From assembly GCA_029339505.1 (NCBI GenBank), contig JAQISU010000248.1, positions 124,001 to 188,000 on the forward strand: DNA of 64,000 nucleotides, in the 5' to 3' direction. This stretch comes from Unio delphinus. Lineage: Eukaryota; Mollusca; Bivalvia; Unionida; Unionidae. Of this stretch, positions 18,798-43,756 are shown piece by piece. The position numbers and the translations under genes are program-made. The notes below the pieces were generated by a model. That model was not told the DNA's origin. It did not search any database and saw nothing but the letters and a program-made list of their open reading frames with translations. Each line of letters begins with the position of its first letter. Position 1 is the stretch's first letter.

Positions 18798-18802
18798 CAT
18801 AT
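18798..18802. repeat. Target site duplication of the Polinton-like element, left copy (CATAT)
   Basis: CATAT immediately precedes the AG-starting terminal inverted repeat and recurs at 35117-35121 immediately after the CT-ending right repeat. Five to six base duplications are normal for Polinton integration. Confidence 0.75.
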
Positions 18803-19027
18803 AGCAACAAATAGGATGAACAGACTGAAACTATTTCAGACAACCCGAAACTATTTCAAACAAAGAAAAACTATTTCAGCAAAATCTTAAAAGATTTCAA
18901 ACCAAAACTATTTTGCAGGCAAAAAAAAGAAATGGTTCGGTTTGTCACACTATTGAGACAGAGTCTCCAGAAAGACCCTGCACTGATGGCATTGTGGAGA
19001 CGAATTGAAAATCCTTTAGGATTTCAA
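18803..19027 (+). repeat. Left terminal inverted repeat
   Basis: Aligned with the reverse complement of 34911-35116. Shared blocks include 'aactatttcagcaaaatctt', 'aaaagatttcaa', 'aactattttgcag', 'cggtttgtcac' and 'cactgatgg'. The left copy has three 'gaaactatttca' units against two on the right, explaining its extra ~20 bases. The stop of the ATPase gene lies at its inner edge. Confidence 0.9.
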
Positions 19028-19683
19028 CCGAATATTTGATCAAGTCCGATACGATATCTTGATCTCGGGTCATGCAAATTTATCGTTACAAATCCATGTG
19101 GAATTGTCTAAGCGTAACTAAAGAAATTTCTAAAAAGATAATAATCCATATCACCGCCGCACCAAGTTTGCCAAATACTTCGTAGCGTATGTGTGTCTAC
19201 TCCATTAAATACAGCAAGAATATTGCAGTTATCTCTGATAACTTTTGGTATTTAAGTGTATCGTTGAATGACATATATCACATCGGTATTTTTATGAGTG
19301 CCTCTGGAAAATATCATAGCGGGATTCTTTTGATTGTCTAACATGACATCATCATATACGACTAAATTGTTAATACTTCCATCAATATCATCAATACTCG
19401 GTGCTTCTTAGATATAAATTCAATAATATCCTCATCAATTTCCGATTTTGCTTTCTGGTTAAAATCCTTTAACACCTCGTAACATCGCTGATCGTCTACA
19501 CTAGGGGCTACTAAATAAACTTATCCCATTTCACCCATCTCGTTATGAAATTAAGATTAAGTAACAATTGTATCTTGCCACTTCCAGATGGTCCGATTAT
19601 AATCATACGAATATAATTTGGTAGCTCTGCATGATGTTTAACTGGATATCGTTTTTGTTCGCCGAAACATCAATTACATTCAT
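19024..19683 (-). pseudogene. A32/FtsK-HerA-type DNA packaging ATPase, frameshifted
   Basis: It would drive ATP-dependent packaging of the viral genome into capsids. The ATG is at 19683 and about 220 codons are spread over three frames. A Walker A 'IIIGPSGSGK' lies near the N-terminus, with the expected Thr/Ser after K replaced by Ile (ACA>ATA-type change). A Walker B-like 'NNLVVYDDVML' is followed by 'FSRGTHKNTDVIYVIQRYT', the arrangement of the A32-like ATPases of NCLDVs, virophages and Polintons. Frameshifts fall near 19600, 19535 and 19400, and a stop follows 'NFFSYA'. It is divergent from the PLA2-like gene with only 17 bases between starts, so a shared bidirectional promoter is likely. 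Confidence 0.8.
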
Positions 19684-19700
19684 GTTATTATAAATAAATT

Positions 19701-20196
19701 ATGGATCTATATGGTGTGAAATGTAAGAAGCTTACTAGCACAAACGACTTGACGATTACAACTAAAAGTAACAGATTAGGACTTGCTGGTAAGTGTGTAC
19801 AATGTGGTACCAAAAAAATTAGATTTGTTTCCCTTGATAAAATCAAGGATTTAAAAAAAACGAGGAGGTAATATTGCAGCCAAGTTAGTAAAATTACCAG
19901 GAACACCATGGACAATATATCCTGGAGAAAAACACCTTCCAGGGTATAGTTAATGTGGACCCGGGACCAGACTCGATATCCGACTTGATGATCAAAACCA
20001 ACCCAAACCTGGTGAATATCCAATAAACGCTATTGATAAGGCGTGTCATGCTCATGATGTTGCTTATAAAAGCAGCAATCTGCAACACAGACGTATCGCA
20101 GATGTAAAATTGATTCATGCGTTGAATTCTATCACTGATAAATTCTTCACAAAAAAAATTGGCTTCATGGTTGATAAAATTGGCGATGAAAAGTAA
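19701..20196 (+). pseudogene. Phospholipase A2-like protein (parvovirus VP1u-type motif), frameshifted
   Basis: The ATG is at 19701. The N-terminal part has a C-x2-C ('GKCVQCGTKK'). After a shift at the A8 run near 19853 comes 'KLPGTPWTIYPGEKHLPG', then 'CGPGTRLDIRL' (Ca-loop-like G-P-G) and 'IDKACHAHDVAY', which is the D-x-x-C-x-x-H-D-x-x-Y active site with the His-Asp pair. Proteins of this kind occur in parvoviruses and in some Polinton-like or adintovirus-like elements, where they are thought to help endosomal escape of virions. A TAA interrupts the frame just before CGPGT. The C-terminus is basic. Confidence 0.72.
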
Positions 20197-20228
20197 ATTA
20201 ATGTTGGGTGCTGGTAATTATTAACATC

Positions 20229-21166
20229 ATGGAATCTTTTTAGTATTCCCCAAGAGGATACTGGAGGGGTAAATCAGCAATCAGTAAACTCGCTAGCGCC
20301 ACAAAAGGTGAAAAATACCACTGCAGCGGATTGGTTATCCAAACAGGCGATATGGTAAATTTATCTACCACCGCCTAAACAAATTAATTTCTCGCATTTT
20401 GATGTCAGCGTCCCTAATGAGGTTCATCAAGCTGATATATTATTTCTGCCGAATGATGGTGTTTACAAGTATGCGCTAACCGTAGTTGATGTTGCGAATA
20501 GATACAAACAAGCTGAACCATTAAAGACGAAGTCATTAACTGATGTGGTTTCTGTGTTTGAAAGGAAGGGTCCTCTGAATTGGCCAAATCTATTACAAGT
20601 TGAACCTGGAAAGGAATTTCAGGGTGCAGTGTTATCAACAATGAAGCATCATAATGTCACCATCAGACGAGGACATACTGCACTACATCGCGATCAGGCA
20701 ATTGTTGAACGATTTAATTGCACACTTCCTGAGTGGTTATTTGGATATCAATACGCGAAGGAATTTATTCAGAATAAACGATTCCGTGAATGGGTCAAGA
20801 TATTACCAGGCGTAATTATTGCGCTAAATAATGAGATTACTCGAACAATGAACATGAAACCTAACAACGCGATTAAAAAAAAAGTATATACCCATAAAAG
20901 CACAAAATGATTTTTCAAAACAAACAATACTTGGCATTGTCACTGTTAGATATTTTTATGAACCAGGAGAGCATGAAGGCAGTAAAAAAAGAGCTAATGA
21001 TCAGATTTGGAGTGTCACCACGCATAAAATATCTAGCATAACACGATTCACGGGTAGACCAGCAATCTATAGATTGGCTTCAACTGCTCCTGAGCGCGGA
21101 TTTACTCGTGAACAACTACATGTGATACCCGAGAATACACAATTACCGCCGCGTGGTCTTAACTAG
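20229..21166 (+). pseudogene. Polinton-type rve integrase, frameshifted
   Basis: A retroviral-type DDE integrase inserting the element. The ATG at 20229 opens a short N-terminal part ('YWRGKSAISKLASATKG' in a shifted frame). The catalytic core follows: first Asp in 'VHQADILFLPND', third acid in 'HRDQAIVERFNCTL', and between them 'LLQVEPGKEFQG', where the second catalytic Asp is expected before P/x-G-x-E-F but a Glu is present. After a shift in the A9 run at about 20873 a C-terminal SH3-like part follows ('VRYFYEPGEHEGSKKRAND' to 'TQLPPRGLN'). The next gene is convergent, its stop 65 bases away. Confidence 0.85.
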
Positions 21167-21231
21167 CACCTCTGTGTCTGTTGCACTCAAGACAAGTCAG
21201 CATCACATTATCTCTGGTATGAGCTACGCTG

Positions 21232-24200
21232 CTATAATTTTCTGTCTACAGCAAATTGGCTGGGGTCTTTATCCGACCAACACCAACGCATTATACAATT
21301 ACAACTCGCGCAGTGATTATTCTGTTGTTGTTTTAGTGTAATTATAAATTCAGCATCAATGTCAAATTTTCTATTATTTTTTTTTGTCCTGTTGTTTATA
21401 ACCAGAGTTTTTTTTCTGATTATGTCGACTCTGACAATATACCTGATTGTTGTGTCATTATAATCTAAAACAACTCTTCGAAGTTGATTTATTCTTCGTA
21501 CTCTGGACACTGCAAGATAAACTATATTCGACCACTCGATGCGATTATCTATGATCCAAACAATTGTATCTGACATAGTCAATCCCTACGAAGAATGTAT
21601 CGTTGCTGAGAATAATAGCTTCCATGGGGACAGCACTGATATCAACTAACACAATATCATTTAATACGAGAATCTGCTTCTCACTTTGTCCTGGAAGATC
21701 AACTTCGATATGTTGTCTTCGTGTATCCTTGGGTCTATAACACAATAGCACTAGAAGTGTTGCATATTTTTCTTTATGCGTGTTAAATAACTTCATCTGA
21801 AGTGTATCTCTGACTATCTTTCTTCTTGCCACTATCAAATCGTTTGGTCTCCACGCTTCCAAGAAAAAAATTAATGGTATTTCTGAAATTATTTCATGCG
21901 CTATTTCACACTGGATTCTATCCGGTTGTAATTTGATTAAATTCTTGAACTCGTGTAATTCATTATCAAGTGATCTATGATCAGCACTAATTTCGTCATG
22001 ATAATCTACAAAATTCTTTAGCCAATTATGTGGAGACAAACCGACAAATGGTGGTCGTTGACCATGATCGCCACACATTATCACTTTTTTATTCGCTAGT
22101 TTCTTGAACTCACGTAATTGTTCATCAAGTGCTCTATGATCAGTATTAATTTCTTCATAATAGTCTACACAATTCTTCAGCCAATTATGTGTGGATAAAC
22201 CGACAAATGGACTCGGTTGACCATGATCGCCACACATTATTAATTTTGTATTCGCTAGCAATAACCACTCGAGAAACATTTGTAATACATCTAACGACAC
22301 TGTGCATATCTCATCCCAAATAATGATTTCAGGAATATATTTCTCGCCCATTCGATCAGGAGACCATTCGTCACATTTCCGTCGAAAAAAAAATATGATA
22401 AGTGCAAGCAATAATTCCTCGATGTTTCATCTCTCTTGCAAGTCTGTGTGTTGGTGTTAGAACAATCATGTTTGATTTCCCTCGAAATAATTCAATCGCA
22501 CGAGTCGTCTTCCCTGATTTACCACAGCCGTTTAAATAACTGGTTTTATATCTGCATATTGGATCGGATATCGAAGGTGCATTAGATAGTTCTAATATCT
22601 GATTATTTTTCAAGTTATTGTTTTCAGTTGTAACATCTTCTGATTTGGAGTAATCACGCAGTATTTCATTTTTAATTCTCCATGATCCCCAACACTCGTC
22701 TATATAAAATGAATCAATGGCGACTCTAACGGCGGATTCAGGAAATCTTTTTATCATCGAAAATAAATTAACAGAAGCATAACCCAGCATAGACGACCTT
22801 ATATATACTGAGAATTTTCTCGATCTGTGTAAATAACAATTGTGCCGAATTTGGTTCCATCAGACAAGAAAGCGTCTCTACGATTGACATATATACCCTT
22901 GGATGTTGCATCTGCGATTATAAAATCGTATTCAGCATTATCTATAATCAACCGCGAAGAATATCGTTTATGGTCGTATTTTCCAGTTTGTGTGAATTTA
23001 CCAATTATTCTTCTAATGAGATATTTTGCGTGTTTATTTCTAACTTCACAGATTTCTTTGGACCATTTCACGATATATTCTTCGTCTAGATTTGGAAATT
23101 GTTTTTGTTTTCGCTGATTATACTATCTAGCCTATTGGGTTTTGGTAACCAGACTTCAGTTTGTTTTCGATATGATATAATCGCTTCACTGACAATCAGC
23201 GATATCAGCATTTTAGAATCAATCATATACCGTAATAATACTATTGGCATCCAGTGTTTTTCAGAGATGTGTCTACAAAACAAACATAACAGCACGGATG
23301 AAAACCCTTAGCGATTTCGAATGATACCACAAGAGCGAATCCGGTTAAATCAAAATCGGGCAGTGGTCCATTAATCGCAACACGGGTCATTTCGTGTGTA
23401 TTATGTCCAAATCTTTTAAAGTACTCAGAACACTCTCCGTACCCGAGAAAATTTCCCGGATAACACGCATATCAACCGAAATAATACTTTTGGGGTCATA
23501 CTTTGTATTCCATAATTCACCATGGCCATAAATAACACAACTATCTTGGAAATCCGAGAATTCTGCGCGTGTTGGTTTCCATAGATTTCTCTTTCTCGTG
23601 AAATGAGCTCAGCTGACAGTATTGTAAAACAGTTTGTTAATAATTGTTCGTTGTGTTCCGTTGAAAAACCACTAGCTAGTTTTATCAATTCGTTGTGGAT
23701 GGCTTCAGTACGATATAATTCGCCGTTGGGTTTTACAAATTGATCGAATTTACCCTCTTTGTTTTCAAAACTCTGAAATAACAACACTGACACAGGATCG
23801 TTTTACTTGACTGCGAAATAAAATCAAACAAATTTCCCGTGTAATATTTTATTGTTCTATCCCGCGGAAATATTGTTACCGAGGATGTCCACGCGTGTGT
23901 ATTATGGTCAATAATTCTGATTGGAGATCCTCTCGATTTATGTTTCGATTCATATAATATCTCGCCTGTTACTGTCGTTACGGTTATTGGAAATTTTAGT
24001 ATCCGTTCTAACGCGGCCCCATTTTGAATTGTTGCGCCTCTCTCCTTCACTGTTAATCCCCATTCGTTTATTCTTTTGCGTCTTAGACTGTGAATTTGTT
24101 ACCACGCAACACATTTGTAAAATGCTCTATTATTCGTGCTGCTACACAATTCAACGACGAATATTTCTTGGGTTTTAATTTTTCAGTACTCGGTTTATCA

Positions 24201-24654
24201 TTTATCGGATAGATCCCATAAACAACTGCGGTTACAGGATTGGATCTCTCGTAATACGGTTTGTCAATTCCAGTCAGAATTCCTGGTTTGGAATCCTGAC
24301 TCACAGTGACAGTTCTCTTATCCTTCAGGATGGGTTCAAATTTGTCGCGTATAATCCAATTTCCCGTTTCTGAACGGATAATGAATTTTACTCTAACAAA
24401 TACTTTTTCTGGTCAAGATGCAAGATTATCACTGCTGCTCTTTCGTCGTTCATGGTAGCATCAACGCCACCATCAATTCGAAATGTTGACCAACAGTGAG
24501 ATGCTCCATCGCTCTTGAATTCATTAAAACCACGGATTTTACCCAACATGCCACTATCACTTATTAGACCTTTTGGTACATCAGTGGAGACGCTATCGAG
24601 ATTGAATTTAGCACTTTTCCAAGGCGTAATTTTCGATAATCTCTCGAACTCCTC
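21232..24654 (-). pseudogene. Large replication protein: tentative protein-primed PolB fused to SF1 helicase, frameshifted
   Basis: About 1140 codons in several frames; no ATG survives at the 5' end. The N-terminal half contains 'IIDHNTHAWTS' and, near 23470, 'IISVDMR' followed by 'GHNTHEMTRVAINGPLPDF', which I read as a PolB motif A neighbourhood. At 22790-22710 'LGYASVNLFSMIKRF' then 'VRVAIDSFYI' looks like PolB motif C with DTDS changed to AIDS. The C-terminal half is an SF1 helicase: Walker A 'NGCGKSGKTTRAIELF' (~22530), motif Ia 'IVLTPTHRLAREM', Walker B 'IIIWDEICTVSL' (~22330), motif III 'IMCGDHGQ' present twice, and motif VI 'YLAVSRVRRINQL' (~21500). The helicase is sure; the PolB reading is inferred from order and motif C. 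A related copy lies at 41275-42440. Confidence 0.75.
21941..22258 (-). repeat. In-frame 159-bp tandem duplication inside the helicase
   Basis: Units 22100-22258 and 21941-22099 each begin 'ctagcgaata' on the minus strand and encode a 53-residue block starting with the motif III segment 'IMCGDHGQ' and including 'HNWLKN' and 'DHR(A/S)LD'. They differ at several positions in protein and DNA. The related gene at 41275-42440 has only one unit. Confidence 0.9.
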
Positions 24655-24700
24655 TTAAATATAATTAAAACAAGTTTTTAAATAAAGAATTTATTATATA

Positions 24701-24980
24701 ATGAATCATTGCAAATGGCTTATGATAGGATCAGTAACCGCTTGTAACAAATCATGCAGAAATGAATTCTGTGGATATCATTTAAAAAGCGTACGTCGTG
24801 GAAGTTTGGGAACGTCACCTTGTATACGATGTGGAGTAGGTGTGCGTGGTAAGTCACAGTTGTGTCTCAATTCTGGTGGTAAGCGATACAGAGAGTTAAA
24901 GAGTTAAAAACTCCATCAAGGATTCCATCAAAGATTCCGTCAATGACTCCATCCCTGACTCTGTCAAAGACAAAATCATA
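24701..24980 (+). pseudogene. Small Cys-rich (zinc-ribbon-like) basic protein, frameshifted near its end
   Basis: The ATG at 24701 opens 68 codons with 'CNKSCRNEFCGYHLKS' and 'CIRCGVGVRG', giving four or more Cys and a His in zinc-knuckle-like spacing. The frame ends at a TAA produced by a tandem repeat of 'gagttaaa'. In the next frame the reading continues into Pro-Ser-Ile/Thr repeats ('TPSRIPSKIPSMTPSLTLS') to a stop near 24980. Function unknown; a DNA- or RNA-binding role is only suggested by composition. Divergent from the replication gene. Confidence 0.55.
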
Positions 24981-25065
24981 AGAACACCTCAAGACTACAT
25001 TGAAAGATTCTCAAGTAATAATTAAACCAAATAATTAATTAGACAAATAATATTATAGTATATAA

Positions 25066-25496
25066 ATGAACCAAGAAATTAGGTCACATCCTACGATAAT
25101 TGATTATGAAGCATCTCGTGATGGCATTGTCAGACACCGGAGACTGAAAAAACCATTAGGGACGGACAATGGTCTTGGGTATTTGATGTTTACTGCTGGA
25201 GGGAAAAAATAGTACTGTCACATAATCGCATACGAGTGTTTCCATGGATTGATAAAAGATGGGTTTGTAATCGATCATATTGATTCTAATCCTAAGAACA
25301 ATTCTTTATCGAATCTACATTATATTACTCAGAGTGAAAATTCCAAACGAGGAATGACTGGAAAACACTCGAAAATGCTAGACCCCTAAAATCATTTAAT
25401 ACAGCAACTAACGAAGAAAGAGTATTTAAATCAGTGAATGAAGCCGGTAGATATTTTGATATTTGCGAACCCTCAGTACGAAAAGTAGCAGAATAA
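25066..25496 (+). pseudogene. HNH endonuclease with NUMOD-like C-terminal helix-turn-helix, broken
   Basis: The ATG at 25066 gives an N-terminal strand region ('GYLMFTAGGKK'), an in-frame TAG, then 'HIIAYECFHGLIKDGFVIDH' and 'SNPKNNSLSNLHYITQSENS', the H...DHID...N.L.NL pattern of the HNH fold found in homing endonucleases. After a frameshift near 25385 comes 'RVFKSVNEAGRYFDI' followed by 'CEPSVRKVAE', matching the NUMOD1 DNA-binding motif. It is related to mobile intron or inter-genic nucleases of phages and large viruses. Whether it was a viral gene or a passenger is unknown. Confidence 0.75.
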
Positions 25497-26429
25497 ATAT
25501 ATCAATCAGCGATTTCCAAAAGAACCGGACATAGAATTCAATTTACATATGTCTGAATTCTGTTTTGTATTGTATATATGTAACACCAAGGGAAATAGCT
25601 CGTGTGGGCTTGTGTATACGGTTTTTGAAAGAGATAACTGTCAAAGGATCTCAATGGAAATAATTGAGTATTTGTTTTGCGAGAAAATGAATCAAATAAA
25701 AAAAAGTATACTACAGTAGTATTCTTTTTTTTGGATGTTTTTTTCTCAAGTATTCGGTCTTGTTTAGATGCTATTAATAATCATAATTAAGTACACGAAA
25801 GAATAAAATCGCACAACTCTGTCATTGGTTTTCATGTATTAGTTAACTTACATACTATGCTATCTCCTAAAGTATTGGGGCTTTAAACCATTCGAAATTC
25901 AAACCGTGAAACCACCATATGTCACACACCATCACACGGTGTTAATGTGCTTTTGCATTCAACCAGGGTGATTTTGTTGGGGTTATGGTGGTTTCAGTTG
26001 AAAGCAGAACAGCCCTTTGTGCATTGTCCTATTTTGTATATTATATTTCGTTAAAATCCGAAAAGGATTTCAACCACGCCTTATTGGATTTCGCTAAACT
26101 GTTGTCGTACAGGTAAGGTAATCTGATAGGCTGTCGTCATTCATTGGATTTCGCTAAACTATTGTAGTACAGGTTAGGTAATCTGATATGTCATCATGTA
26201 TTTGTGCCTACATACCTTCTCTAAAAACAGAGGTAAAGGCTGTGTATGCCTTCTCTAAAAACAGAGGTGAAAGGCTATTGTATTGTCTATGTGCCAACAT
26301 ACCTTCTCCAAAACAGAGGTAAAGACTGTGTATGTCCTATATATCAAAAATGAAAATCGGGTCAAAATTGACCCCTAATTTTATTGTATTTGATATATAA
26401 AATATATTAGATATATAATATATCATATA
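25497..26429. other. Intergenic region with short tandem repeats
   Basis: A weak open frame covers 25500-25719 ('DIEFNLHMSEFCFVLYIC') but has no start or recognised domain. From 26083 a ~60-base unit with 'ttggatttcgctaaact' and 'taggtaatctgata' is repeated twice (to 26200). From 26209 'ccttctctaaaaacagaggt' with 'aaaggctgtgtatg' occurs three times (to 26340). This separates the early-type genes from the morphogenesis block and may hold promoters. Confidence 0.5.
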
Positions 26430-26809
26430 ATGAATTTCGAAAATATGAATGGCATTATAATTGAGATTTCAAATTTGAAAAATCAAGGAATAAAATTGTC
26501 AGATAAAATAGATTGTAATTAGATTCTCTCTGAATTTCAAGATCTTGATGATAACGCTCAGAATAATAGATATGTCCTTGCGAAACAGTATGGGTTTATC
26601 AAACGAATTCAGCGCGCGGTAAATGACTCGCTTGTATTCGATAACGACATCAATTTATCCCGCTGTTCACTCTGGTTGAAAAGGTCAGAGGCGAATTGGG
26701 CAAACAATATGAAATCAAACGCACAATAAACTCAAAAATCAAAACAATAAGGGAAATCGTCAGACAAAATGAAAATCACTTCTCCGTTTTGGTTGCCTCA
26801 ACACAGTAA
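26430..26809 (+). pseudogene. Unknown small protein, predicted helical, two breaks
   Basis: The ATG at 26430 opens 'MNFENMNGIIIEISNLKNQG', an in-frame TAG follows, then 'RYVLAKQYGFIKRIQRAVND', and after a shift near 26665 'YEIKRTINSKIKTIREIVRQ' to a TAA at 26807. Charged heptad-like spacing suggests coiled coil. No family was recognised. It is the first gene of the rightward block. Confidence 0.4.
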
Positions 26810-27427
26810 GTGTACAATGTCCATGCAGTACAAAATATGTTTGCAGGTGAGTAATCCACATTCTATAAATAGGTATGCTTACTCAGATGGAACGATAACT
26901 CTATAATACCTTCCAAGTATTGTGTTTTTCTTTTGCGCGGTGATTTTATCACCAACGTGGAAGTAATGAAACATTGTAGTGAAATTCAAAAGAATTTCGG
27001 GTGGGTGGATTTTATTTCGTTTACTGCTGAAATATTTTCAAGGAACTTTTTTCTTCATTGATTTGTGATCATTTTCGGTTGTTTTTTGTCATTTTGGTGG
27101 TGTTTTAATGCAATCCGTCGACATAATGTCATGAAAATTGAGGGTAAAAACCTCAAGAATTCATTTAGAGAAAATCGATTTTTATGAAATTTTTATCCTT
27201 GTGAGGCAAATTTTATGGTGTTTTTCATCGTGATCGTCGAATCTTCGATGCTTCTTTTATTGCTTTGTTACTGTTTTTGGCTAATCCATTGACAAGATTT
27301 CATGAAAATCGATTTTCTCTAAATGAATTCCTGGGTTTTTTACCCTCGATTGTTATGAAAAAAAAGAAACGCGTACCTATCTGTGGACTTGCGTTTACAA
27401 TTAGAAAATCCTATTGATTTTTACATA
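26810..27427. other. Intergenic region with a long imperfect palindrome
   Basis: Arms at about 27135-27188 and 27302-27356 are reverse complements over roughly 50 bases, sharing 'gaattcatttagagaaaatc' and 'gagggtaaaaa', separated by a loop of about 113 bases. No coding capacity was recognised. Adjacent to the start of the structural gene block. Confidence 0.8.
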
Positions 27428-28398
27428 ATGGTAGATGAAGCCCTAACAACTAGATTAAACCGTGAGAGATTATCTGCGATTAAGAGATTTATTCCGGTTC
27501 GTGTTTCTGCTACAAAAGAGACAGGAATTTCAAACCGCTTTTACAACGGGCACTGAACAATTATTCAAACCAGTAACCACTGCTACCAAGGAAGCCACAT
27601 TGACCACTGGAAAAGCTATATTGTGAGAGTTTGCTGACGAACAGGATAGAAAAAAGGGTATTCTCCCATTGTTAAAACAGATAGATGAAGAAGAACAACA
27701 ACAGGGTGATGTTACTAAAACAACGGTTTCTTTAGTGGATTAATTTACTGATAAAGCCAAAACACTAATAAAACAATTTAAATTATTAAAAACTAGTGAT
27801 TATCACGCTTTTGGTGATTTGCTGTTAAAAGATATCATTCGAGAAATGAGTTGTTTTTAAAAGACGATTATAAAAGAAATACAATATCACGCAATGACTG
27901 GGTCAATGGGTTGTATAAAATGAACAAAGGAATTGGTCGTTTAAATAAAAGGGAGTTGGGGTATATAGAATTTAAAGAAGTTGATAATTATGATATACAA
28001 GCACAACAAGAAATACGACAACAAGAGAGGAAACGTGAAACACCAACACGGAGACAAACACGGAAACAAAAAAAAACAAACAACATTAGTATTATATGCT
28101 ATCTGATCGAGACAAAGATGATGCACAGGGTGCAACAGGTACAACAGAAAGAAAAACCGGTGCTGGATATCCAAGTTCTGTTTCAGGTAGTGGTCTTGTT
28201 TGTTGTCCTAATAATATTCTTGGGGATATATCACGATTAGAAGTCCTCGTAGGAGGGAAACGAGCTGGAAATAACTCACCGGAAATAATTAATGAGGCCG
28301 CTGATATCCGCAGACGACTATTTGAGGGTGGTATCATGGATATTGGTGTATACCGAGGGTTTATTGATGAGCTAGCGGACGGTTATCACAGTGCCTAA
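27428..28398 (+). pseudogene. Conserved unknown protein of the morphogenesis block (three copies in window), frameshifted
   Basis: The ATG at 27428 starts 'MVDEALTTRLNRERLSAIKR', and later frames give 'FKPVTTATKEATLTTGKAI', 'LLPLLKQIDEEEQQQGDV'-like, 'SRNDWVNGLYKMNKGIGR', a Lys/Arg/Gln-rich stretch and the most conserved block, 'PNNILGDISRLEVLVGGKR' followed by 'GNNSPEIINEAADI' to a TAA at 28396. At least four frameshifts and stops. The same N-terminus recurs at 35431 and 42588, and the same C-terminal block at 43460-43650. Position directly before pX and capsid genes suggests a virion component; no fold was recognised. Downstream, 'ctaatttgatgactttgtcatt' is tandemly duplicated (28396-28442). 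Confidence 0.6.
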
Positions 28399-28519
28399 TT
28401 TGATGACTTTGTCATTAGTGACTAATTTGATGACTTTGTCATTTGATTAGATATATAACATTTAAATAAGATGATCATACAAAACAACCACAATAACACA
28501 ACCATGACTTATGTAGTAA

Positions 28520-28960
28520 ACTCACGATTGCTTTGTTTATAAAGCGTACTATGGAGATGGTCTCGGCAATACCATTGCAGGGTTATGTACAAGAATGGCT
28601 CCAAAAATAGCACCTATCGCAAAACAGTTTTCGATGAAAGCTATTGATGTTATTCGTGATAAGGGCATTAGCGCTGTTGGTGATGTTGCCGGGAAAGCAT
28701 TTTCCGCGGCTAAAGAAAAACTAGTAGCGTTAGTTCAGCGACGAAAGAAACCGGCGATAACTTGGTTATTGGGGAAATTACAATCTACTGAAATTATGCC
28801 TGCATGTATTAGCAAAATAATAAATAACGCAGTGGATCAAAAAATAGCATCACTGAACAATGATGGATATGACACTCAGGGAAATATTACTGCAAATATG
28901 ATAGTGGGATGTGGCCTGACGAAGTCATCGAGATCGCGATTTAGATCAAGAAATATATAA
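28520..28960 (+). CDS. pX-like core protein (adenovirus pX/pVII-type, Polinton family)
   Basis: The frame is open from 28520 with 'VYKAYYGDGLGNTIAGL', an ATG at 28595, and a C-terminus at 28960. Features: a Gly-rich 'YYGDGLG' start, a hydrophobic amphipathic helix 'MAPKIAPIAKQFSMKAIDVI', a basic cluster 'QRRKKP' and a basic end 'SSRSRFRSRN'. Polinton-like elements carry a protein of this build next to the capsid gene, thought to be a minor capsid or DNA-condensing factor. This is one of few reading frames without an internal break, though its true start is unclear since no ATG precedes the conserved YYGDGLG. Copy at 43757-44155. Confidence 0.6.
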   Translation, partial: THDCFVYKAYYGDGLGNTIAGLCTRMAPKIAPIAKQFSMKAIDVIRDKGISAVGDVAGKAFSAAKEKLVALVQRRKKPAITWLLGKLQSTEIMPACISKIINNAVDQKIASLNNDGYDTQGNITANMIVGCGLTKSSRSRFRSRNI

Positions 28961-28964
28961 TAAC

Positions 28965-29769
28965 ATGTTCAAATCGTCCCCTGACACAGCGTTTGATTTA
29001 GATGCCCCAGTGCGCAAAGATGATTCTGTACGCGATTATCAATTCTATTCCTATAATGCAGTACAACCAAATAGTCGATCAAGAATCGAACTTCAGGTCC
29101 ATGATACAAGAAAATACTTTCTACCAGCTGAAGCGTTTATTGAAGTAGGAGAAATTGTAACAAATAATCCCGAAGATGATGATCCACTATATGACCTAAA
29201 AAGAAGGAAAATCATTGCAATCATGGCTAACAACAACAATGGATATTAAGGAGGATGATGTTAACGGTGTATTTACTTGGCACATGGCATCAAAACAAGG
29301 TGTTACTGCGCCACGTCATATATTTATTGCGTTACAGGATAAGGCGCGATTAAATAACCAAACACGAAGCTATATGACATTTAATCAATTGGGTGTTAAT
29401 GAAGTCTCGTTGAGGATAAACGGCCAACAGGAACCATCCGAAGATATTATACTTAATTACGATCAAAACCAAATAGCACGTGCGTATCATCGTTTGTTGA
29501 CATTTATGGGACGTGATAATAATGTAGATACCGGTCTGCAAATATCACAGTTGGATTTTAGAAAACTATATCCCATCTACTACTTTTCATTGGAACATCT
29601 TGATTTAACAAGACAGTCCGTCGTTGACATACACTTCTGAGCTCGTGTAAACCCTCCTGGTGCTACTAATTACAGAGCAGTTGCTGTCATTCTCAGTGAC
29701 AAATCAATGCTACTCGAAGGTGCTGATGGACGAATGAGGGTAGTTGATGCACCAGTGGAAAATATGTAA
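28965..29769 (+). pseudogene. Major capsid protein (double-jelly-roll type), internal deletion and stop
   Basis: The ATG at 28965, four bases after the pX stop. N-terminal part: 'APVRKDDSVRDYQFYSYNA' and 'RSRIELQVHDTRKYFLPAEA', the first strands of the capsid protein of invertebrate Polinton-like elements. At about 29235 ('NNNNG') the frame breaks and resumes in the C-terminal part ('FTWHMASKQGVTAP', 'SLRINGQQEPSEDIILNY', 'YPIYYFSLEHLDLTRQS'). Comparison with the copy at 35757-36930 shows roughly 200 or more residues missing at this point. A TGA at 29638 sits where the sister copy has CGA, after which 'ARVNPPGATNYRAVAVILSD' continues to the TAA at 29767. Family assignment is by pattern; a structure prediction would settle it. 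Confidence 0.72.
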
Positions 29770-29809
29770 TGTAATAATTAGATCAGTCTGTTATTAAATA
29801 AAATGTCAT

Positions 29810-31136
29810 TGTAACAGAATTGTTACCGAGTGGTTGGTGGATTAAATGAACAACACAAACACAATATGTGAAAGATGATGTAAATTTATGAAATAAATTA
29901 TTAATCAAAAATAATGATGTATCAACACAATAACTCATACGTTCAACCCACAATCACACTTCACAACCATTCACAATAAAGAAATAAATTAAATATTAAT
30001 ACAAAATAAACACAGATTCAAGGAACCTCCTGGACTACACAAATGTTTCAAATAAAATTGAACCTTTACAAAAGTTATATTGTCGCACGTATAAATTGCG
30101 ATAACAAATGCAAACATCTACATGTATTAAATCAAGTTACTAACTGTTATTGAGATTCATGTAATCCCTTGGAATACTACTGTGATTCAAAGTAACTACG
30201 TGTAAATATAACAATGTATTCAATTGTAACCACAATTGAAACACACACATGCGTCTCGTCCCTGTACAACCGTATGATTCACCAACTGTTGAATCGCCGC
30301 ACAGCTTCTCCGAATACCTAGGGTTGACCCAATACTTTTATCGGCCGCTTGCCCTTCACGGATCCACTACAGTTATACGTACAGACAGCATACAGCATCT
30401 ACTAGAACCACCGGACCCAAACACTTAGATACTACCCCGGAAGTTTACACCTCTAGACAGCTCCGACACTCTGACATTTAGACTTCTAGATTTCCGGATA
30501 TTTACACATCTCAACAGACGTAGACGGACAGACAATCCGACAGACAGTCAGTCAGATACCTCAATTTGATCGCACAATGAAACAGCATAATCACAGCACA
30601 ATCAATCACATTCAGCCCTTTTGCTGGAGCAATCAATCACATTCAGCTACAATTCAGCTACAATAAAGAAACCAAACTAATAAGTTGTTTCTACAACAAT
30701 GTAAAATTTAGATTACGCTATTGCATTTAAAGTCTAATAGTGACTAGTAATTCCAAATATTCAACGGTTTAAATCTGCATTGTAATAAAGGCATCATTAC
30801 ATTTAACACTCACCCCTTTGGCTGGAGAAAGAATGACGAGCTCTCTCTCCTTTGACAAGATACTTATGACTCGTAATCTTATTAGAAATATTCTGTCTTA
30901 TATGTCCCCAAATAGGTGAGCAGAATTCACGGCAAAATTCCCGTGCACCCCGTGATTATAATGTTCCTGACTTCAAGTGATTCGTAGTCAGGCACATGCA
31001 AATCGCTACACGTCGCTTACCTTGAAAAACACTTATTCACCCCAGGTAACGCATGTACGACGAAACAAAAAAAAAATGGTGAAATTAGTTTGTATTCAAG
31101 AAGAAATAAATTCAATTTTCGCCTAATTCTGTGACA
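29810..31136. mobile_element. Solo LTR (1327 bp) of an LTR retrotransposon
   Basis: It starts TGTAACAGAATT and ends AATTCTGTGACA (TG...CA with 12-bp near-perfect inverted ends) and is flanked by GTCAT on both sides (29805-29809 and 31137-31141), the 5-bp duplication made by retroviral-type integrases. No internal coding region, primer-binding site or second LTR is present, so it is best read as a solo LTR; a DNA element with 12-bp ends is the alternative. The interior has a short direct repeat 'caatcaatcacattcagc' near 30600-30655. It interrupts the next gene directly after its ATG. Confidence 0.75.
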
Positions 31137-31512
31137 GTCATATAGTCTTGTTAGTGTTACGTTAACTCCTGGTCAAATTAAAACATTGCAATTGGAATCA
31201 GCTAAAAAATGTGGAACCACAACATCGCTGAAGCACAATCAGATGTCTGGTGGTCAAAATAAATTGTCATAGACAACTTGTCAGATAAAACACTTCAATG
31301 ATGCCATCAAAGATAAAAAAGGTGTTTAGATCACTCTCTCTGCAGCTGCGATCAAAAACGTGAGAAAATCAGGTGGTATATTCCCACTTTTCACTGCGTT
31401 ACCAGGGTTGATTGCTGCCGCGCTGGGAGCCGTTGGTACAGCGGCAGGGATGGCACTAAAGAAAGCTACCGGACTGGGATACAAAAAAAGAAACGATCAG
31501 AAAAGGGTCTAA
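31137..31512 (+). pseudogene. pVI-like minor capsid protein, 5' end cut off by LTR
   Basis: The original ATG is at 29803, now separated by the LTR. The body gives 'SLVSVTLTPGQIKTLQLES', 'KHNQMSGGQNKLS' with a TAG, 'IKHFNDAIKDKKGV' with another TAG, then 'KSGGIFPLFTALPGLIAA' followed by an Ala/Gly-rich stretch and a basic end 'GLGYKKRNDQKRV'. A short conserved LTPGQ head followed by a GG-hydrophobic-AAALGAVG membrane-active-like helix and basic tail is typical of the small capsid-associated protein of these elements. Copies at 36959-37410 and 44726-45000. Confidence 0.6.
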
Positions 31513-31581
31513 GACTATCAGGAACTCTGTTTTCTTGGTACACCGGAAAGGGCCAGGAACAGTTTACTAACAATAGTTCCC

Positions 31582-32002
31582 ATGTCAAATTTTGATTTAC
31601 TCGATGCTGCTAAAAAAAATAACTAGCGATAAAAAACTTTAGAGGTGTCTTTATGAGAGATCAATTACCAAAACAACCAAACAACACTGAAACCAGTATC
31701 ATTAATGTCGATAACAGCACCGGACCTGGAACCCACTGGGTTGCATACGCGATTGATCCGCGTGTGATCATCTATTTCGATTCATATGGAATAGCGCCGC
31801 CTAAAAAGTTTATGTGTTATATAAACGACATAAAAACTCCTATCTGGTTTTCCACGCTACCAACACAGGAAATGAATGACCCACCAATATGCGGCATAGA
31901 AGTATCAAATGTACTCGACGCGATTTCATCATCGGAAAAAAACACCCCATAAAACCGTACACAAATATACGAGTAATCGGTTTTTCGAGAGAAAGTATAT
32001 AA
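31582..32002 (+). pseudogene. Adenain-like (C5/Ulp1-type) maturation cysteine protease, frameshifted
   Basis: It would cleave capsid precursors. The ATG at 31582 opens 'MSNFDLLDAAKKN', disrupted in the A8 run at 31612. The main frame (31653-31952) carries 'GTHWVAYAIDPRVIIYFDSY' with catalytic His and Asp, and 'MNDPPICGIEVSNVLDA' with the catalytic Cys. A further shift leads to 'YTNIRVIGFSRESI' and a stop at 32002. About 140 residues is the usual size of Polinton proteases, shorter than adenoviral ones. The catalytic residues remain intact despite the frameshifts. The copy at 37416-37683 lost its His/Asp region. Confidence 0.82.
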
Positions 32003-32008
32003 AATAAT

Positions 32009-32904
32009 TTGATTGATATTTGGGGAAGATCCCTCTCAGGGTTGAAAATACCACACGCGGAAATATCTGCAACCGGTGATGTAAAAAAAAAAATCGAAGA
32101 TGAAATATCCGAGATGTTAAACTTTACAAGTGTTGATCCCAATGATATAGTTGTATTTCAAGGAAACTAGTAATGTTTCCCTTGATGATATTTTAGTTAA
32201 ACAACTCTGTGTAGCAGAAAATACTATGGCGGCTTTTTCCGATCAGGGTAAACTCAAACCAGATGTTCTTATTTCAACTATAGTGGATAGAATTAACAAT
32301 TTAGAACCATTAAAAAAACTACACAATGAATATGACGACCATATAACTAAATTTAATCGGTTTTCTGAATTACAAAGTATAATTTACAATATTGACAAAC
32401 CTCTATTAGATTTCTTTGGAAATCCACTGGTGACCACACCGAAACTCACAGAGATAAAAACAGCTATGTTAGAATTAGCAACATTACAATCTAGGTATGA
32501 AGACCATGTTGAGATGTTTTCAATTTTTCGTAAAAATATTATTGAGAAATTCTTTGGAACCTCATTAGATAAACTCGACATAAAACTCATAGATGTAATC
32601 AAATTCCATCGAAGAGATCAAAAAGATCAACGATGTAATCAAAGATGATTTACCGAAGATGATAGAAACACTTGAAAAAACAAAGATTCCTCATGAGAAA
32701 ACCAACAACGTAGTATACACGATTCAACACGGATAATTTATGTGGACACCACAAAATAACATTAAATATCACCGCAACCGTCAAAGGTATTTATCAATTA
32801 ACAATAGTGTCACCGATTCAATTTAATATTTCATCAACGAGTTCATCTGGGGTCAACAATATGATATCAACGATCATCTACAAGGGAACAATTGAACAAT
32901 TCAC

Positions 32905-32937
<33 letters not shown>

Positions 32938-32994
32938 TTGGCTAGGGTGTCAATAACATGGTATGTGGATTTCGTAACGGATTTATGTAAATAG
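32009..32994 (+). pseudogene. Fibre-like structural protein (putative), frameshifted
   Basis: It starts at 32009 with TTG where the sister copy (37702) has ATG; both begin '(M)xDIWG'. Segments: 'AEISATGDVKKKIEDEISEM', then in another frame 'NVSLDDILVKQL', 'FSDQGKLKPDV', a helical central part ('LEPLKKLHNEYDDHITKFNR', 'LLDFFGNPL'), and a C-terminal beta-rich part ('ITATVKGIYQLTIVSPIQF'). An (AAT)n run at 32905-32938 disrupts the C-terminus. N-terminal tail, repetitive shaft and beta head suggest a receptor-binding fibre, but this is inference from layout and position between protease and penton. Confidence 0.45.
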
Positions 32995-33055
32995 CTTAAT
33001 TTAAAACGCCAGCATTTGTATTAGTAGCAATTTCAAATCTGTTGTAATAAACAAA

Positions 33056-33524
33056 ATGTCATGATTGTCAACGTCACAGCAGTATCGCTATGATCAGGTC
33101 ACAGAATTTCAAACTAAACTCAAAACACTCACTGAGGAGTATCAAGTAACAATAAAAGAATAACGACGAAGAATTATCGCAGTTGATGTTACCGTATACT
33201 CGGTATCAGGTGTAATCACCGGAGCTGGTATTATAATCTCCTCTGTGACAATGATTGCCCCGATAGCTCTTCCAATTTGTATATCCGCAGCGACAATCGC
33301 TGAAATAATTTCAATTATAAAAAAAAATATCATCATGTAGGCATTGCAAACTGCAAGATTACGTAGTTAAGTTCCATGTTGTGTCGACCATGTACTCCCA
33401 ATTATCCTCGATGATATCGTCCTCCCTCGATGACACATTAATATCCGATGATAGTGAGTTTTCAGCGATGGTACGTGTTTATGATTCCGCGATGTCAAAA
33501 TTAGAAAAAAAAACACGAATATAA
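33056..33524 (+). pseudogene. Two-helix membrane protein, broken
   Basis: The ATG at 33056 is followed by a TGA two codons on. The body gives 'QVTEFQTKLKTLTEEYQVTI', a TAA, then two long hydrophobic stretches ('VYSVSGVITGAGIIISSVTM' and 'APIALPICISAATIAEIISI') ending in Lys. After a shift near 33325 the C-terminal part reads 'FHVVSTMYSQLSSMI' to 'SAMSKLEKKTRI' and a TAA at 33522. The sister copy at 38640 has the same two hydrophobic helices. Likely a virion or egress membrane protein; no family was recognised. Confidence 0.5.
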
Positions 33525-33529
33525 TAACA

Positions 33530-34921
33530 ATGGCAACATCGCAAGAACTATTTCAACGAATAGTAGGAAATACCACACTGGTGAAAACCAACGATGATAT
33601 CAATAACCTCAACCAATCCTGAATTCAGAGTGAATTTCCCCACTCCGATTCCAGTGAAGGAGATAGCACTAGCAAAATTACGAGTCTGTCACAGTTGGCC
33701 TAACTTTAGGTCAGTACCATTCGGTGGGCAACAACCGAATAATTCCCTGGTGTTTGCGAGTAAGAATAAACAAGATGGAACTCCTGACTGGAACGTTGTT
33801 TCCTTACCATTTGGGTCCTACCAAATTTAACAAATTAATAACGAATTACAACGCAGAATAAAATCCATTACTGGAAAAGAAACGAAAATAGCTATTACAG
33901 TTCATGAACCAACACTATTATCCGCCAGTGAGATAAACTCACCCGGGTATGTCGTAGATATCTATCAGAGTTTGATAAGAACCGTGCAAGGATGGCCTGA
34001 AAAATCTCCTCCACCTGAAACAAAAAAATCTGATTATGTCACGGATAAACAATCATACCACAAATTTACCCCATCATATATAGAACACATCCTCAAAATA
34101 AAAAATTCACCACAGCAGGGTATTAATCATTTTTACCCTAATAAAGATTACGGTTTTTGGAGATTTATTATTGGACCGAATCCATAAATAAATTATATAG
34201 ATATTGAACAAAGTAAATTTATTCAATACTTTATAGAGATCAATCAAAAACACAGTCGACAACTACATCAGGCTTTTCGCGAGTCTAACCAAAGTGAAAT
34301 TATTAAACGAATTGAAATATTAAATCAGCTTATATCCGACATGGAAGATATTTACAAGAAAATAATTCAAGTACTTATTCATGTTGATACTAAAAACAAT
34401 CTCTCTTGACAATTTGTTTTAACTCTATACAATATAACAGAAACTGATCTACCGAATTTCAAGTTTCTTGGGTATAACGCAGACGAACTTAAAAAATCCG
34501 TTAATGATCTTATCAATGAAACGTTTACTATGATACTCACAGCATGGAGACAACAACACAAGGGTTCAACTATACTCAAACATAATAATGACCCAGAGGG
34601 TGGTGGTAGGCATATTGCTCCTCAAAACGTGAATGTATCCTCGGTGATTGCAATAAATCTAGTATGTGATGCTATCGAACTTATCTATCCAAAAAGTCTC
34701 GAAAGATCAAATCAAGCCCAACAAGGATATATTTTTTATATTCATTTGCACCAACAGCTCCTCCAGGATTTATAATAATTGAAGATCCAACTAATCCGAT
34801 CTATATGCGATGAAATAAGAATTCATTAAAGAGAATTAATTTCAAACTCACTGACAAGTCCAATAATCTGATTGATTTACGAGGTGAGGTTTTACAAATC
34901 AGTCTGTTTGTGAAATCGTAA
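33530..34921 (+). pseudogene. Penton-like (minor capsid) protein, frameshifted
   Basis: The ATG at 33530 lies six bases after the membrane-protein stop. Segments in changing frames: 'MATSQELFQRIVGNT', 'FPTPIPVKEIALAKLRVCHS', 'LPFGSYQI', 'VVDIYQSLIRTVQGWP', a long helical insertion ('RIEILNQLISDMEDIYKKII') and a C-terminal strand set 'YSFAPTAPPGFIIIEDPTN' and 'LIDLRGEVLQISLFVKS'. The conserved start with PSYQI-like strand and the end with L-x-D-x-R-G-E match the penton/minor-capsid protein that accompanies these capsid genes. The stop at 34919 lies within the right terminal repeat. Confidence 0.65.
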
Positions 34922-35116
34922 AAGATTTTCAAATCGTCTCTACAACACCATCAGTGCCCGGTCTGTCTGGAGACAGTGTCTCAATAGAGTGACAAACCGA
35001 AACCATTTCTCTTTCTTTGTCTGCAAAATAGTTTCGGCTTGAAATCTTTTAAGATTTTGCTGAAATAGTTTTTGTTTGTTTGAAATAGTTTCGGTCTGTT
35101 CACCCTCTTTGCTGCT
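34911..35116 (-). repeat. Right terminal inverted repeat
   Basis: Reverse complement of the left repeat with about 85-90 percent identity by eye, ending ...TTGCTGCT at 35116. It contains the last 11 bases of the penton-like gene. Confidence 0.9.
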
Positions 35117-35121
35117 CATAT
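35117..35121. repeat. Target site duplication, right copy (CATAT)
   Basis: Matches 18798-18802. The next base differs (a on the right against c-a preceding on the left), so the duplication is five bases. Confidence 0.75.
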
Positions 35122-35430
35122 ACATGTTCAAATATTTTTTCCTTCATTTTTTGTGTCGGAAAATAAAATGGTTATGTATGTATGTATGTATTGGCTAAGT
35201 GATTTTGTTTAAAGATTCCTTGCGTCATATAAAAGTTTCCTAACTTATTTACTTTACTACTAATCTTTTTTTTCCTCATTTTTTCTTAGATATTTTTTAT
35301 GTGACGCAACCTTAAAAAATCACGAAGCTTTTTCTTCGTGGACGATTTTCTCGTGGTGGGTTTGGCCTCACTGCTGCTGTTAAAATATTTTATTTAACGA
35401 AATCTTACAAATTAAATCATATATATCAAT
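35122..35430. other. Spacer between the two virus-like blocks
   Basis: AT-rich, with a (TATG)n run at about 35172-35190 and a perfect hairpin 'cacgaagctttttcttcgtg' (about 35320-35339). Host flank of the element to its left, or the leader of the decayed copy to its right. Confidence 0.5.
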
Positions 35431-35756
35431 ATGGTAGGTGAATCATTAACTTCCCATTGTGCACGAGAGCAACTAGAATAGATTAAGAAATTTATTCCAA
35501 TGAGAGATTCAGTTGAAGAAAAATAATAAGCGCGACAAGAAGCTCAAGTTGATTTTGCAACGGATGCGGAGCAATTTATCAAACTAATTACTACAACGAC
35601 TCGTGAAGTAGTATTTGAGAAACCTGAGGATGAATAAAAAAAAATGGCAAAGAGGACTAAACAAACGAAAAGTTTTTACGAGATCTTCCAACTGATCTAT
35701 CTACACAATTACAACCACAAGCTGCAGCACAACCACAGGCAGTCGTTGACATTGAA
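35431..35756 (+). pseudogene. Conserved unknown virion-block protein, second copy, truncated
   Basis: The ATG at 35431 opens 'MVGESLTSHCAREQLE', then TAG where the related gene at 27428 has a sense codon. The frame is broken repeatedly ('RQEAQVDFATDAEQFIKLI', 'TTTREVVFEKPEDE'). It then runs directly into capsid sequence: the C-terminal 'NNILGDIxRLEVLxGG' block and the whole pX gene are missing, so a deletion joins it to the capsid gene. Confidence 0.6.
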
Positions 35757-36930: not shown

Positions 36931-36958
36931 CACAATTAGATCACTTATATTATTATAA

Positions 36959-37410: not shown

Positions 37411-37415
37411 CGCCG

Positions 37416-37683: not shown

Positions 37684-37701
37684 AAGAATTAATTTAATAT
37701 A

Positions 37702-39070: not shown

Positions 39071-39072
39071 TA

Positions 39073-42440: not shown

Positions 42441-42587
42441 TTTGAGCAAACTTTAAGATGTCTGTTTGTCAAATTAAGGCTTTCTCAAACCGAAAAAATG
42501 TCCAAAAACAGAACCAAGGCTTGTTACGAAACCAAAACACAGACGCTTATTTGTTGTCACGGTTTTGTTAGTTGTTATAACAAATAA

Positions 42588-43650: not shown

Positions 43651-43756
43651 GATTGATTGTCCATGACGCTCGATTAGATAATTAGCATTTAAATAAAATG
43701 ATCATACATCGCAATCACAACAAGCTTAAGCCAACCGTGGTCTACTTAGTAAATTC

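What the first reader, a model, noticed from the sequence alone, without database searches (positions are those of the whole stretch)
18803..35116. Complete Polinton-like virus fossil with defined ends and target duplication
Seen: facing terminal repeats of 225 and 206 bp starting AG, 5-bp CATAT on both sides, and remnants of integrase, packaging ATPase, maturation protease, capsid and penton genes. Known: this gene set defines Polinton/Maverick elements and related adinto-like viruses. Inferred: a once-infectious or self-mobilising virus, probably of a mollusc. The gene content (PolB-helicase fusion, PLA2, HNH) differs from the textbook Polinton and may mark an undescribed lineage.
Basis: partly seen in the sequence, partly recalled or inferred. 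Interest (0 to 1): 0.92.

Follow-up and report, generated by a model that had tools for sequence, protein, structure and literature searches.

The report
Decayed Polinton-like virus in mussel DNA
A bivalve genome, probably a freshwater mussel's, carries the decayed remains of an ancient DNA virus that inserted itself into the chromosome, and its copying enzyme resembles one described mainly from viruses and mobile elements of single-celled organisms.

Summary
The observation largely holds. 18803-35116 is a decayed element with ~90% identical terminal inverted repeats (K2P 0.11), AG ends, and CATAT on both sides (6-bp CATATA if one terminal base is shared). PLA2 (preceded by DUF5679) and HNH pass curated cut-offs. 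Integrase and double-jelly-roll capsid fall below them but have independent support. ATPase and protease are weak. Penton found no profile support. The replicase reads as a Tlr1-like fusion: polymerase palm (motif-level only; first Asp of DTD missing), PIF1-like SF1 helicase, HNH, with little room for an exonuclease. That departs from textbook Polintons. Helicase and capsid pieces have relatives in the mussel Sinanodonta woodiana and in mostly short, unnamed contigs; seven IMG/VR scans found none. The host is a bivalve, probably unionid-like. Polinton fossils are common in bivalves, so the element as such is ordinary; a Tlr1-type replicase beside a Polinton-type integrase and capsid in an animal is the notable part. 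Intact copies, exogenous virus and exact lineage remain untested; the own-genome search did not complete.

The parts
18803..19038 (+). left terminal inverted repeat, starts AGCAAC
   Evidence: 194/216 columns identical to the right repeat, K2P 0.11
34895..35116 (-). right terminal inverted repeat, starts AGCAGC on the minus strand
18798..18802 (.). left target duplication CATAT (CATATA if A18803 is counted)
35117..35121 (.). right target duplication CATAT (CATATA with 35122)
19252..19669 (-). candidate remnant of packaging ATPase (A32/FtsK-like), in pieces
   Evidence: Pox_A32 E=0.0027 on 19511-19669, below cut-off; other two pieces no match
19698..20196 (+). DUF5679 then phospholipase A2-like domain, broken
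   Evidence: PF18930 1.9e-8; PF08398 2e-6
20359..21163 (+). rve integrase remnant (core piece to 20910; the following piece assigned by position); D26, E82 where D is expected, E117: 35-residue spacing
   Evidence: PF00665 5.8e-4 and IS481 3.5e-7, both below cut-off; residue positions; tail piece 20858-21163 no Pfam
21162..24412 (-). replicase remnant, minus strand: HNxHAW (vOTU-like) 23906, motif A-like ~23470, motif B-like 23005, motif C-like 22727, PIF1-like SF1 helicase, C-terminal HNH to 21162
   Evidence: piece-wise hmmsearch with relatives, E down to 1e-133; motifs; relatives. Motif C and Walker A share one open piece (22374-22859); helicase end and HNH share another (21235-21585)
21942..22258 (.). 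159-bp tandem duplication inside the helicase remnant
24686..24907 (+). cysteine-rich conserved piece of unknown function
   Evidence: short matches in copy 3, E 7.9e-5 and 4e-4
25213..25496 (+). free-standing HNH_3 + NUMOD1 homing-endonuclease-like gene remnant
   Evidence: 2.8e-15; 2e-4, just below cut-off
28090..28957 (+). two conserved ORF remnants upstream of the capsid gene, unknown function
   Evidence: 50-75% identity to copy 3 by stretch; no Pfam
28920..29769 (+). major capsid protein (double jelly roll) remnant, broken by a frameshift and an in-frame stop
   Evidence: PF21738 1.3e-5; 37 relatives; hmmsearch 9e-84; the N-terminal piece 28920-29249 is inferred from position
29810..31136 (.). 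later 1,327-bp insertion, TG...CA ends, 5-bp GTCAT duplication; copies 2 and 3 lack it
31137..31620 (+). conserved gene remnant after the capsid gene (its first codons precede the insertion)
   Evidence: 80% over 44 aa to copy 3
31623..31952 (+). adenovirus-type maturation protease candidate
   Evidence: PF00770 E=0.0018, below cut-off
   Evidence: best stretches 58-67% identical to copy 2, pN/pS 0.25 and 0.37; no profile match
35404..39600 (+). copy 2: diverged fossil with capsid, protease-region and 'penton' remnants, same order
40750..45012 (+). copy 3: diverged fossil; replicase block inverted relative to copy 1, then capsid-region genes

Best explanation
A decayed integrated provirus/self-synthesising element of the Polinton supergroup in a bivalve (probably unionid-type mussel) genome, combining a Polinton/adintovirus-type integration and capsid module with a Tlr1-like pPolB-SF1 helicase-HNH replicase. 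Likely life cycle. (1) Linear DNA is copied by protein priming at its inverted repeats, the helicase domain unwinding ahead of the palm (inferred from domain order and the literature on Tlr1-like proteins). (2) DJR capsids are built, matured by the protease and filled by the ATPase (capsid shown by homology, the other two weak). (3) PLA2 breaches an endosomal membrane at entry (inferred from parvoviruses). (4) The rve integrase joins both ends to chromosomal DNA and leaves a short target duplication (ends and duplication shown, the act inferred). After insertion it lost function: frameshifts, stops, a tandem duplication and a later 1.3-kb insertion. Two sister copies beside it suggest repeated invasion by a diverse family.
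For: Ends and duplication. Integrase. Capsid: Pfam; 37 of 41 candidates; lowest-E BFVD match an adintovirus capsid (E=1.1e-6, but TM only 0.36/0.17); 28 of the 50 PDB rows shown are DJR capsids, 24 of them PRD1/PR772 entries, none at E<=0.001, on a poor model (pLDDT 45). Replicase: PIF1/RecD2-type helicase. Motif C-like and helicase Walker A stand in one open piece of the window (22374-22859), helicase end and HNH in another. Only 2 of 20 relatives reach far enough upstream; both carry the motif, with A in place of the first Asp, also under a pattern that leaves that residue free; L001 too. PMC11071308 section 10 describes this for Tlr1-like helicases. C-terminal HNH in 7 of 20 relatives by pattern, many of the rest being truncated; PHROG profile 1.3e-10 on P0001. 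Coding past: pN/pS below 1 in 21 of 22 same-strand stretches; pooled 0.35 (375 codons) and 0.41 (706 codons); third positions vary most. Host.
Against: No search recognised a PolB palm: Pfam on the window pieces and relatives, PDB on the N-terminal part of P0003 (0 matches); the model of that part is poor (about pLDDT 30-60). The palm therefore rests on short motifs and position. The replicase is broken, so the missing exonuclease could in part be a deletion. P0003 is a gene model and may join exons. Integrase and capsid pieces of the window lie below curated cut-offs; ATPase, protease and penton are weak or unsupported. The pooled codon counts contain overlapping stretches, and opposite-strand rows were dropped. 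No tree was built. No IMG/VR relative. The own-genome search did not complete (18 tries).
Confidence: 0.8

Rival explanations
1. An ordinary animal Polinton/adintovirus: a standard TP-vOTU-exonuclease-palm polymerase beside an independent helicase gene, blurred into an apparent fusion by decay.
For: The lowest-E BFVD capsid match is an adintovirus; rve integrase and, in some, PLA2 occur in Polintons (PMC4642659 passages); Mavericks are in all analysed molluscs (PMC10294476 passages); the palm is recognised only by motifs.
Against: Motif C-like and Walker A share one open piece in the window (22374-22859) and one ORF in P0003 and P0014; helicase and HNH share one ORF in seven relatives; only about 145 aa (window) and 116 aa (L001) separate the vOTU-like motif from motif A.
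Confidence: 0.14
2. A composite locus: the inverted repeats belong to an unrelated foldback element and the viral genes were already there.
For: The region is rich in mobile elements, including a foldback at 27129-27358 and a 1.3-kb insertion; two other viral copies lie beside it without detected terminal repeats.
Against: The repeats enclose the whole gene set with the target duplication exactly outside; gene order in the structural block matches the neighbouring copies; AG-type ends are reported for Mavericks (PMC8097293 passage).
Confidence: 0.04
3. The locus is a protist or other non-animal contaminant in the assembly.
For: In the passages read, Tlr1-like replicases come mainly from protist-associated viruses and elements; one relative sits in a contig of an archaeal MAG.
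Against: A gypsy ORF in the same window is 76% identical over 78% to a Sinanodonta woodiana protein, and every named relative in that list is a bivalve; the same mussel has helicase and capsid relatives on contigs of 165 and 190 Mb.
Confidence: 0.02

Closest known systems
Tlr1 element / PLVs and transpovirons with Tlr1-like pPolB-S1H replicase (PMC11071308)
   Same: palm with altered motif C, C-terminal SF1 PIF1-like helicase, C-terminal HNH in some; rve integrase in Tlr1
   Different: described, in what I read, from a ciliate and other protist-associated elements and viruses; most PLVs of the 2015 set lack rve integrase and protease (PMC4642659); here in a bivalve with rve integrase, PLA2 and an adintovirus-like capsid match
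Polinton/Maverick and adintovirus elements of animals
   Same: size, AG-starting inverted repeats, short target duplication, rve integrase, DJR capsid, PLA2 in some
   Different: replicase carries a fused SF1 helicase and HNH with little room for an exonuclease; target duplication reads as 5 bp, or 6 bp with one base shared
Chimeric animal viruses of PMC11071296 (passages), e.g. an adomavirus of a Tegillarca clam dataset
   Same: adintovirus-type virion genes combined with a foreign replicase, in a bivalve dataset
   Different: there a papillomavirus E1-like replicase in a predicted circular genome; here a Tlr1-like fusion in an integrated element with rve integrase
OmPLV helicase-pPolB fusion of Oxyrrhis marina (PMC12721341)
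   Same: SF1 helicase fused to pPolB in an endogenised PLV
   Different: there the helicase is N-terminal and the exonuclease is retained; here the helicase is C-terminal
Sinanodonta woodiana proteins ACJMK2_035551 (P0003) and ACJMK2_025727 (P0052)
   Same: same replicase and capsid families (48% over 87% and 83% over 33% of the query pieces)
   Different: named only hypothetical proteins; whether the elements are intact there was not tested

Membership tests
Polinton/Maverick (bona fide) | rve-type integrase | tested here: met
   (matches below curated cut-offs, catalytic spacing as expected)
Polinton/Maverick (bona fide) | terminal inverted repeats starting AG | tested here: met
Polinton/Maverick (bona fide) | 6-bp target duplication | tested here: inconclusive
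   5-bp CATAT, or 6-bp CATATA if one terminal base is shared
Polinton/Maverick (bona fide) | pPolB with exonuclease and no fused helicase | tested here: not met
   motif C-like and helicase Walker A in one open piece of the window and one ORF in P0003 and P0014; 116-145 aa between vOTU-like motif and motif A
Polinton/Maverick (bona fide) | DJR major capsid protein | tested here: met
Polinton/Maverick (bona fide) | penton / minor capsid protein | tested here: inconclusive
   no profile match for 4 pieces
Polinton/Maverick (bona fide) | packaging ATPase and adenovirus-type protease | tested here: inconclusive
   Pox_A32 0.0027 and Peptidase_C5 0.0018, both below curated cut-off
Tlr1-like pPolB-S1H replicase | palm with first Asp of motif C DTD replaced | tested here: met
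   window, P0003, P0014 and L001; motif-level only, palm fold not recognised
Tlr1-like pPolB-S1H replicase | C-terminal SF1 (PIF1-like) helicase | tested here: met
Tlr1-like pPolB-S1H replicase | C-terminal homing endonuclease (HNH or GIY-YIG) | tested here: met
Tlr1-like pPolB-S1H replicase | vOTU domain, no exonuclease | tested here: inconclusive
   HNxHAW motif and short spacing only
Adintovirus | PolB and hexon reciprocally recognisable by BLASTp | not tested
   no reference adintovirus proteins were compared by sequence; one structural match on a poor model
Virophage (Maveriviricetes) | virophage-type capsid placed in a tree | not tested
   no tree built

The most novel reading that the evidence does not exclude
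Bivalves, above all freshwater mussels, host a diverse and still undescribed lineage of integrating DNA viruses in which a Polinton/adintovirus-type capsid and integrase module is stably coupled to a Tlr1-type polymerase-helicase-HNH replicase and a DUF5679-PLA2 entry factor: an animal branch linking Polintons to Tlr1 elements and transpovirons.
Probability: 0.55. Interest if true: 0.6.

Novelty: new variant of a known kind. Interest (0 to 1): 0.45.

Why it matters
Tlr1-like replicases are used to argue how Polintons, PLVs and transpovirons are related (PMC11071308). In the passages read they come mainly from protist-associated elements and viruses. A version in an animal genome beside an rve integrase and a Polinton-type capsid would be a mixed type that bears on the order of those events. 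It also suggests that part of the abundant 'Maverick' DNA of bivalves may belong to a lineage that a search with standard Polinton polymerases would not separate out. Three diverged copies within about 27 kb suggest repeated colonisation.

Tried and rejected
Seven scans of IMG/VR, with five single pieces (capsid, helicase, integrase, ORF 28520, PLA2) and two alignments (A1, A3), found no relative. One scan of GTDB genomes with A1 gave one locus, L001, a 3,152-bp contig of a Diapherotrites MAG that is itself broken and 54.6% G+C; I read it as a probable mis-binned eukaryotic piece, not an archaeal virus. PHROGs gave Dda/RecD-type helicase and, for P0001, HNH/endonuclease VII matches, plus weak rows; tblastn on phages gave 52 records, the 15 listed being helicase regions (Dda-type) or genes named hypothetical or AAA family ATPase, and none for the capsid. 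AlphaFold models were poor (pLDDT 54 and 45). For the helicase model only RecD2 (3e1s) came at E<=0.001; the other rows shown by Foldseek and VIA-align are mostly unrelated PLP or receiver folds, with TraI and human Pif1 among them, and no polymerase row was shown; not used for the palm. Besides the adintovirus capsid, the two other matches of the capsid model at E<=0.001 are a phage structural protein and a bracovirus protein. The A3 profile's PDB match to a yeast chromatin protein (3.3e-4) was dropped as probably spurious; the single capsid piece had no meaningful PDB match. Weak Pfam rows for unknown pieces (e.g. NIP_1 0.007, WSN 0.007) were dismissed. In my note I wrote that the 1.3-kb insertion splits the capsid gene; the relatives show that the capsid ORF ends at about 29769, so the insertion lies just after it, in the first codons of the next gene. 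Left flank 1-18802: no similarity to the element at E<=1e-3. No Rfam match. Copies 2 and 3: no terminal repeats recognised (25 of 44 inverted pairs shown, arms of at most 31 nt). My first motif C pattern demanded A or S at the key residue; a looser one gave the same window piece and relatives.

Full report
WHAT IS THERE. The block 18803-35116 has facing terminal repeats. My alignment gives 18803-19038 against 34895-35116, 194 of 216 ungapped columns identical (89.8%), K2P 0.11, with one 20-nt gap and a few short ones; 200 single-base shuffles reached a score of at most 51 against 304 observed. Outside the AG ends stands CATAT on both sides. Since the left end begins with A and CATATA follows the right end, a 6-bp duplication with one shared base fits as well as a 5-bp one. 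A K2P of 0.11 between ends that should be identical at insertion (inference) means the insertion is old. No calibrated rate is at hand, so I give no date.

GENES, READ PIECE BY PIECE. From left to right: ATPase candidate (minus strand), DUF5679-PLA2, rve integrase, replicase (minus strand), cysteine-rich piece and HNH_3-NUMOD1 gene, conserved ORFs, capsid, a small gene, protease candidate, further ORFs and the so-called penton. Above curated cut-offs: PLA2 2e-6, DUF5679 1.9e-8, HNH_3 2.8e-15. Below them but supported otherwise: capsid DJR 1.3e-5 (with 37 relatives, one of which, P0021, passes the cut-off) and integrase (rve 5.8e-4; IS481 3.5e-7). Weak: ATPase 0.0027, protease 0.0018. Unsupported: penton. 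Within the integrase piece the expected middle Asp reads Glu, and the spacing to the last Glu is 35 residues (the catalytic pattern is recalled).

REPLICASE. A 293-aa helicase piece has 20 relatives among 607 candidates. In the window itself one open piece (22374-22859, minus) holds a polymerase motif C-like RVAIDSFY and the helicase Walker A, and another (21235-21585) holds the helicase end and the HNH start. Among relatives, 7 of 20 show helicase and C-terminal HNH in one ORF by pattern, with a PHROG endonuclease VII match of 1.3e-10 on P0001. Only P0003 and P0014 reach well upstream of Walker A; both carry RVATDS there, also when the pattern leaves the key residue free. L001 carries it too. 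The first Asp of DTD is thus missing in the four sequences that carry the motif. PMC11071308 (section 10 read whole) describes this for Tlr1-like helicases: palm with altered motif C, SF1 helicase, C-terminal HNH or GIY-YIG, vOTU before the palm; its abstract says that the exonuclease is lacking. A HNxHAW motif that I take as the vOTU histidine (my reading, not tested against a profile) lies about 145 aa (window) and 116 aa (L001) before motif A; a full exonuclease would hardly fit (domain size recalled). Profile searches place the helicase near a solved helicase deposited as a TPR-domain protein, 5ftb (1.3e-9; a bacterial Pif1, recalled), further Pif1 entries, and RecD2 (7.6e-12). No Pfam or PDB search recognised the palm, so the polymerase part rests on motifs and position.

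NEIGHBOURING COPIES. Two further fossils follow. Copy 2 (about 35404-39600) keeps capsid, protease-region and 'penton' in the same order. Copy 3 (about 40750-45012) keeps replicase and capsid region, with the replicase block inverted relative to copy 1. Over the 12 aligned stretches they match copy 1 at 67-80% DNA identity, so they look like separate members of a diverse family, not recent duplicates. In 21 of 22 same-strand stretches amino-acid changes are rarer than silent ones (pN/pS below 1); one short stretch gives 1.10. Pooled values are 0.35 for copy 2 (375 codons) and 0.41 for copy 3 (706 codons), and the third codon position varies most. Stretches overlap and opposite-strand rows were dropped, so the pooled numbers are approximate. 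The genes were under selection after the lineages split and decayed later.

LATER DAMAGE. At 29810-31136 a 1,327-bp sequence with TG...CA ends and GTCAT on both sides interrupts copy 1 just after the capsid ORF; copies 2 and 3 have the uninterrupted sequence. A solo LTR is the likeliest reading (inference). The helicase has a 159-bp tandem duplication.

HOST AND RELATIVES. For the gypsy ORF at 56483-59032 the best-scoring relative is unnamed (81% over 75%); the best named one is from Sinanodonta woodiana (76% over 78%), and every other named one is a bivalve: Pinctada, Saccostrea, Mytilus, scallops (42 relatives among 7,998 scored candidates). Helicase and capsid pieces also hit Sinanodonta. 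That points to a bivalve, probably a unionid-type mussel other than Sinanodonta (inference). The other relatives sit mostly on short unnamed contigs. Because the gypsy element is found on such contigs too, some may be mussel DNA in water rather than virus (inference). P0007 (helicase) and P0040 (capsid) are both listed with a contig of 14,727 bp, probably the same one. None turned up in IMG/VR (7 scans).

COMPARISON. Maverick DNA is common in molluscs: 1.69 and 1.93% in the two columns of a table in PMC8905726 (passages), and present in all genomes analysed in PMC10294476 (passages). PLA2 in some Polintons is known, and the PLVs of 2015 lack a protease and, with one exception, rve integrase (PMC4642659, passages); a protease was later found in one PLV group (PMC7805220, passages). 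Vertebrate Mavericks with 6-bp duplications and AG-type ends: PMC8097293, passages. Bellas et al. found almost all of the original and vertebrate Polinton capsids in one cluster, cnidarians being the metazoan exception (PMC10120064, passages). Combinations of adintovirus-type virion genes with foreign replicases are already reported, one in a Tegillarca clam dataset (PMC11071296, passages); that lowers the novelty of mixing as such. The element is not filed as a bona fide Polinton (one defining feature not met) nor as a standard PLV; it works like both. In ten paper searches (listings, some capped) I saw no report of a Tlr1-type replicase in a bivalve or other animal element. That search is limited: three key papers (Krupovic 2016, Starrett 2021, Kapitonov 2006) are not held.

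VERDICT. As a Polinton fossil it is ordinary; its replicase type in an animal is unusual and testable. Confidence 0.8 in a Polinton-supergroup provirus with a Tlr1-like replicase; lower (0.55) that it marks a distinct animal lineage.

Noticed in passing
55828-59659: Young gypsy-like element: 392-bp direct repeats 99.7% identical (55828-56219 and 59268-59659) around an 849-aa open frame on the minus strand.
   Followed up: partly
29810-31136: 1,327-bp insertion with TG...CA ends and a 5-bp duplication; both sister fossils serve as empty sites. Probably a solo LTR.
   Followed up: yes
46242-47507: Open frame of 421 aa on the minus strand beside copy 3; no convincing Pfam family.
   Followed up: partly
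27129-27358: Foldback with 65-nt arms, 88% complementary, right where similarity to copy 3 begins (27359).
   Followed up: partly
62756-63160: 68-bp tandem repeat array, 6 copies, 92% matches.
   Followed up: no
52888-53352: Helicase C-terminal domain remnant (PF00271 2.2e-11) on the minus strand; a LINE-type endonuclease ORF at 54113-54694 by eye.
   Followed up: partly
L001:1-3152: Contig assigned to a Diapherotrites MAG holds a broken Tlr1-like replicase, 54.6% G+C; probably a mis-binned eukaryotic fragment. The Woesearchaeota MAG fusion protein reported in PMC12721341 may deserve the same check.
   Followed up: partly
40750-45012: Replicase block and capsid block lie on the same strand in copy 3 but on opposite strands in copy 1: an inversion in one of them or a real gene-order difference.
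   Followed up: no
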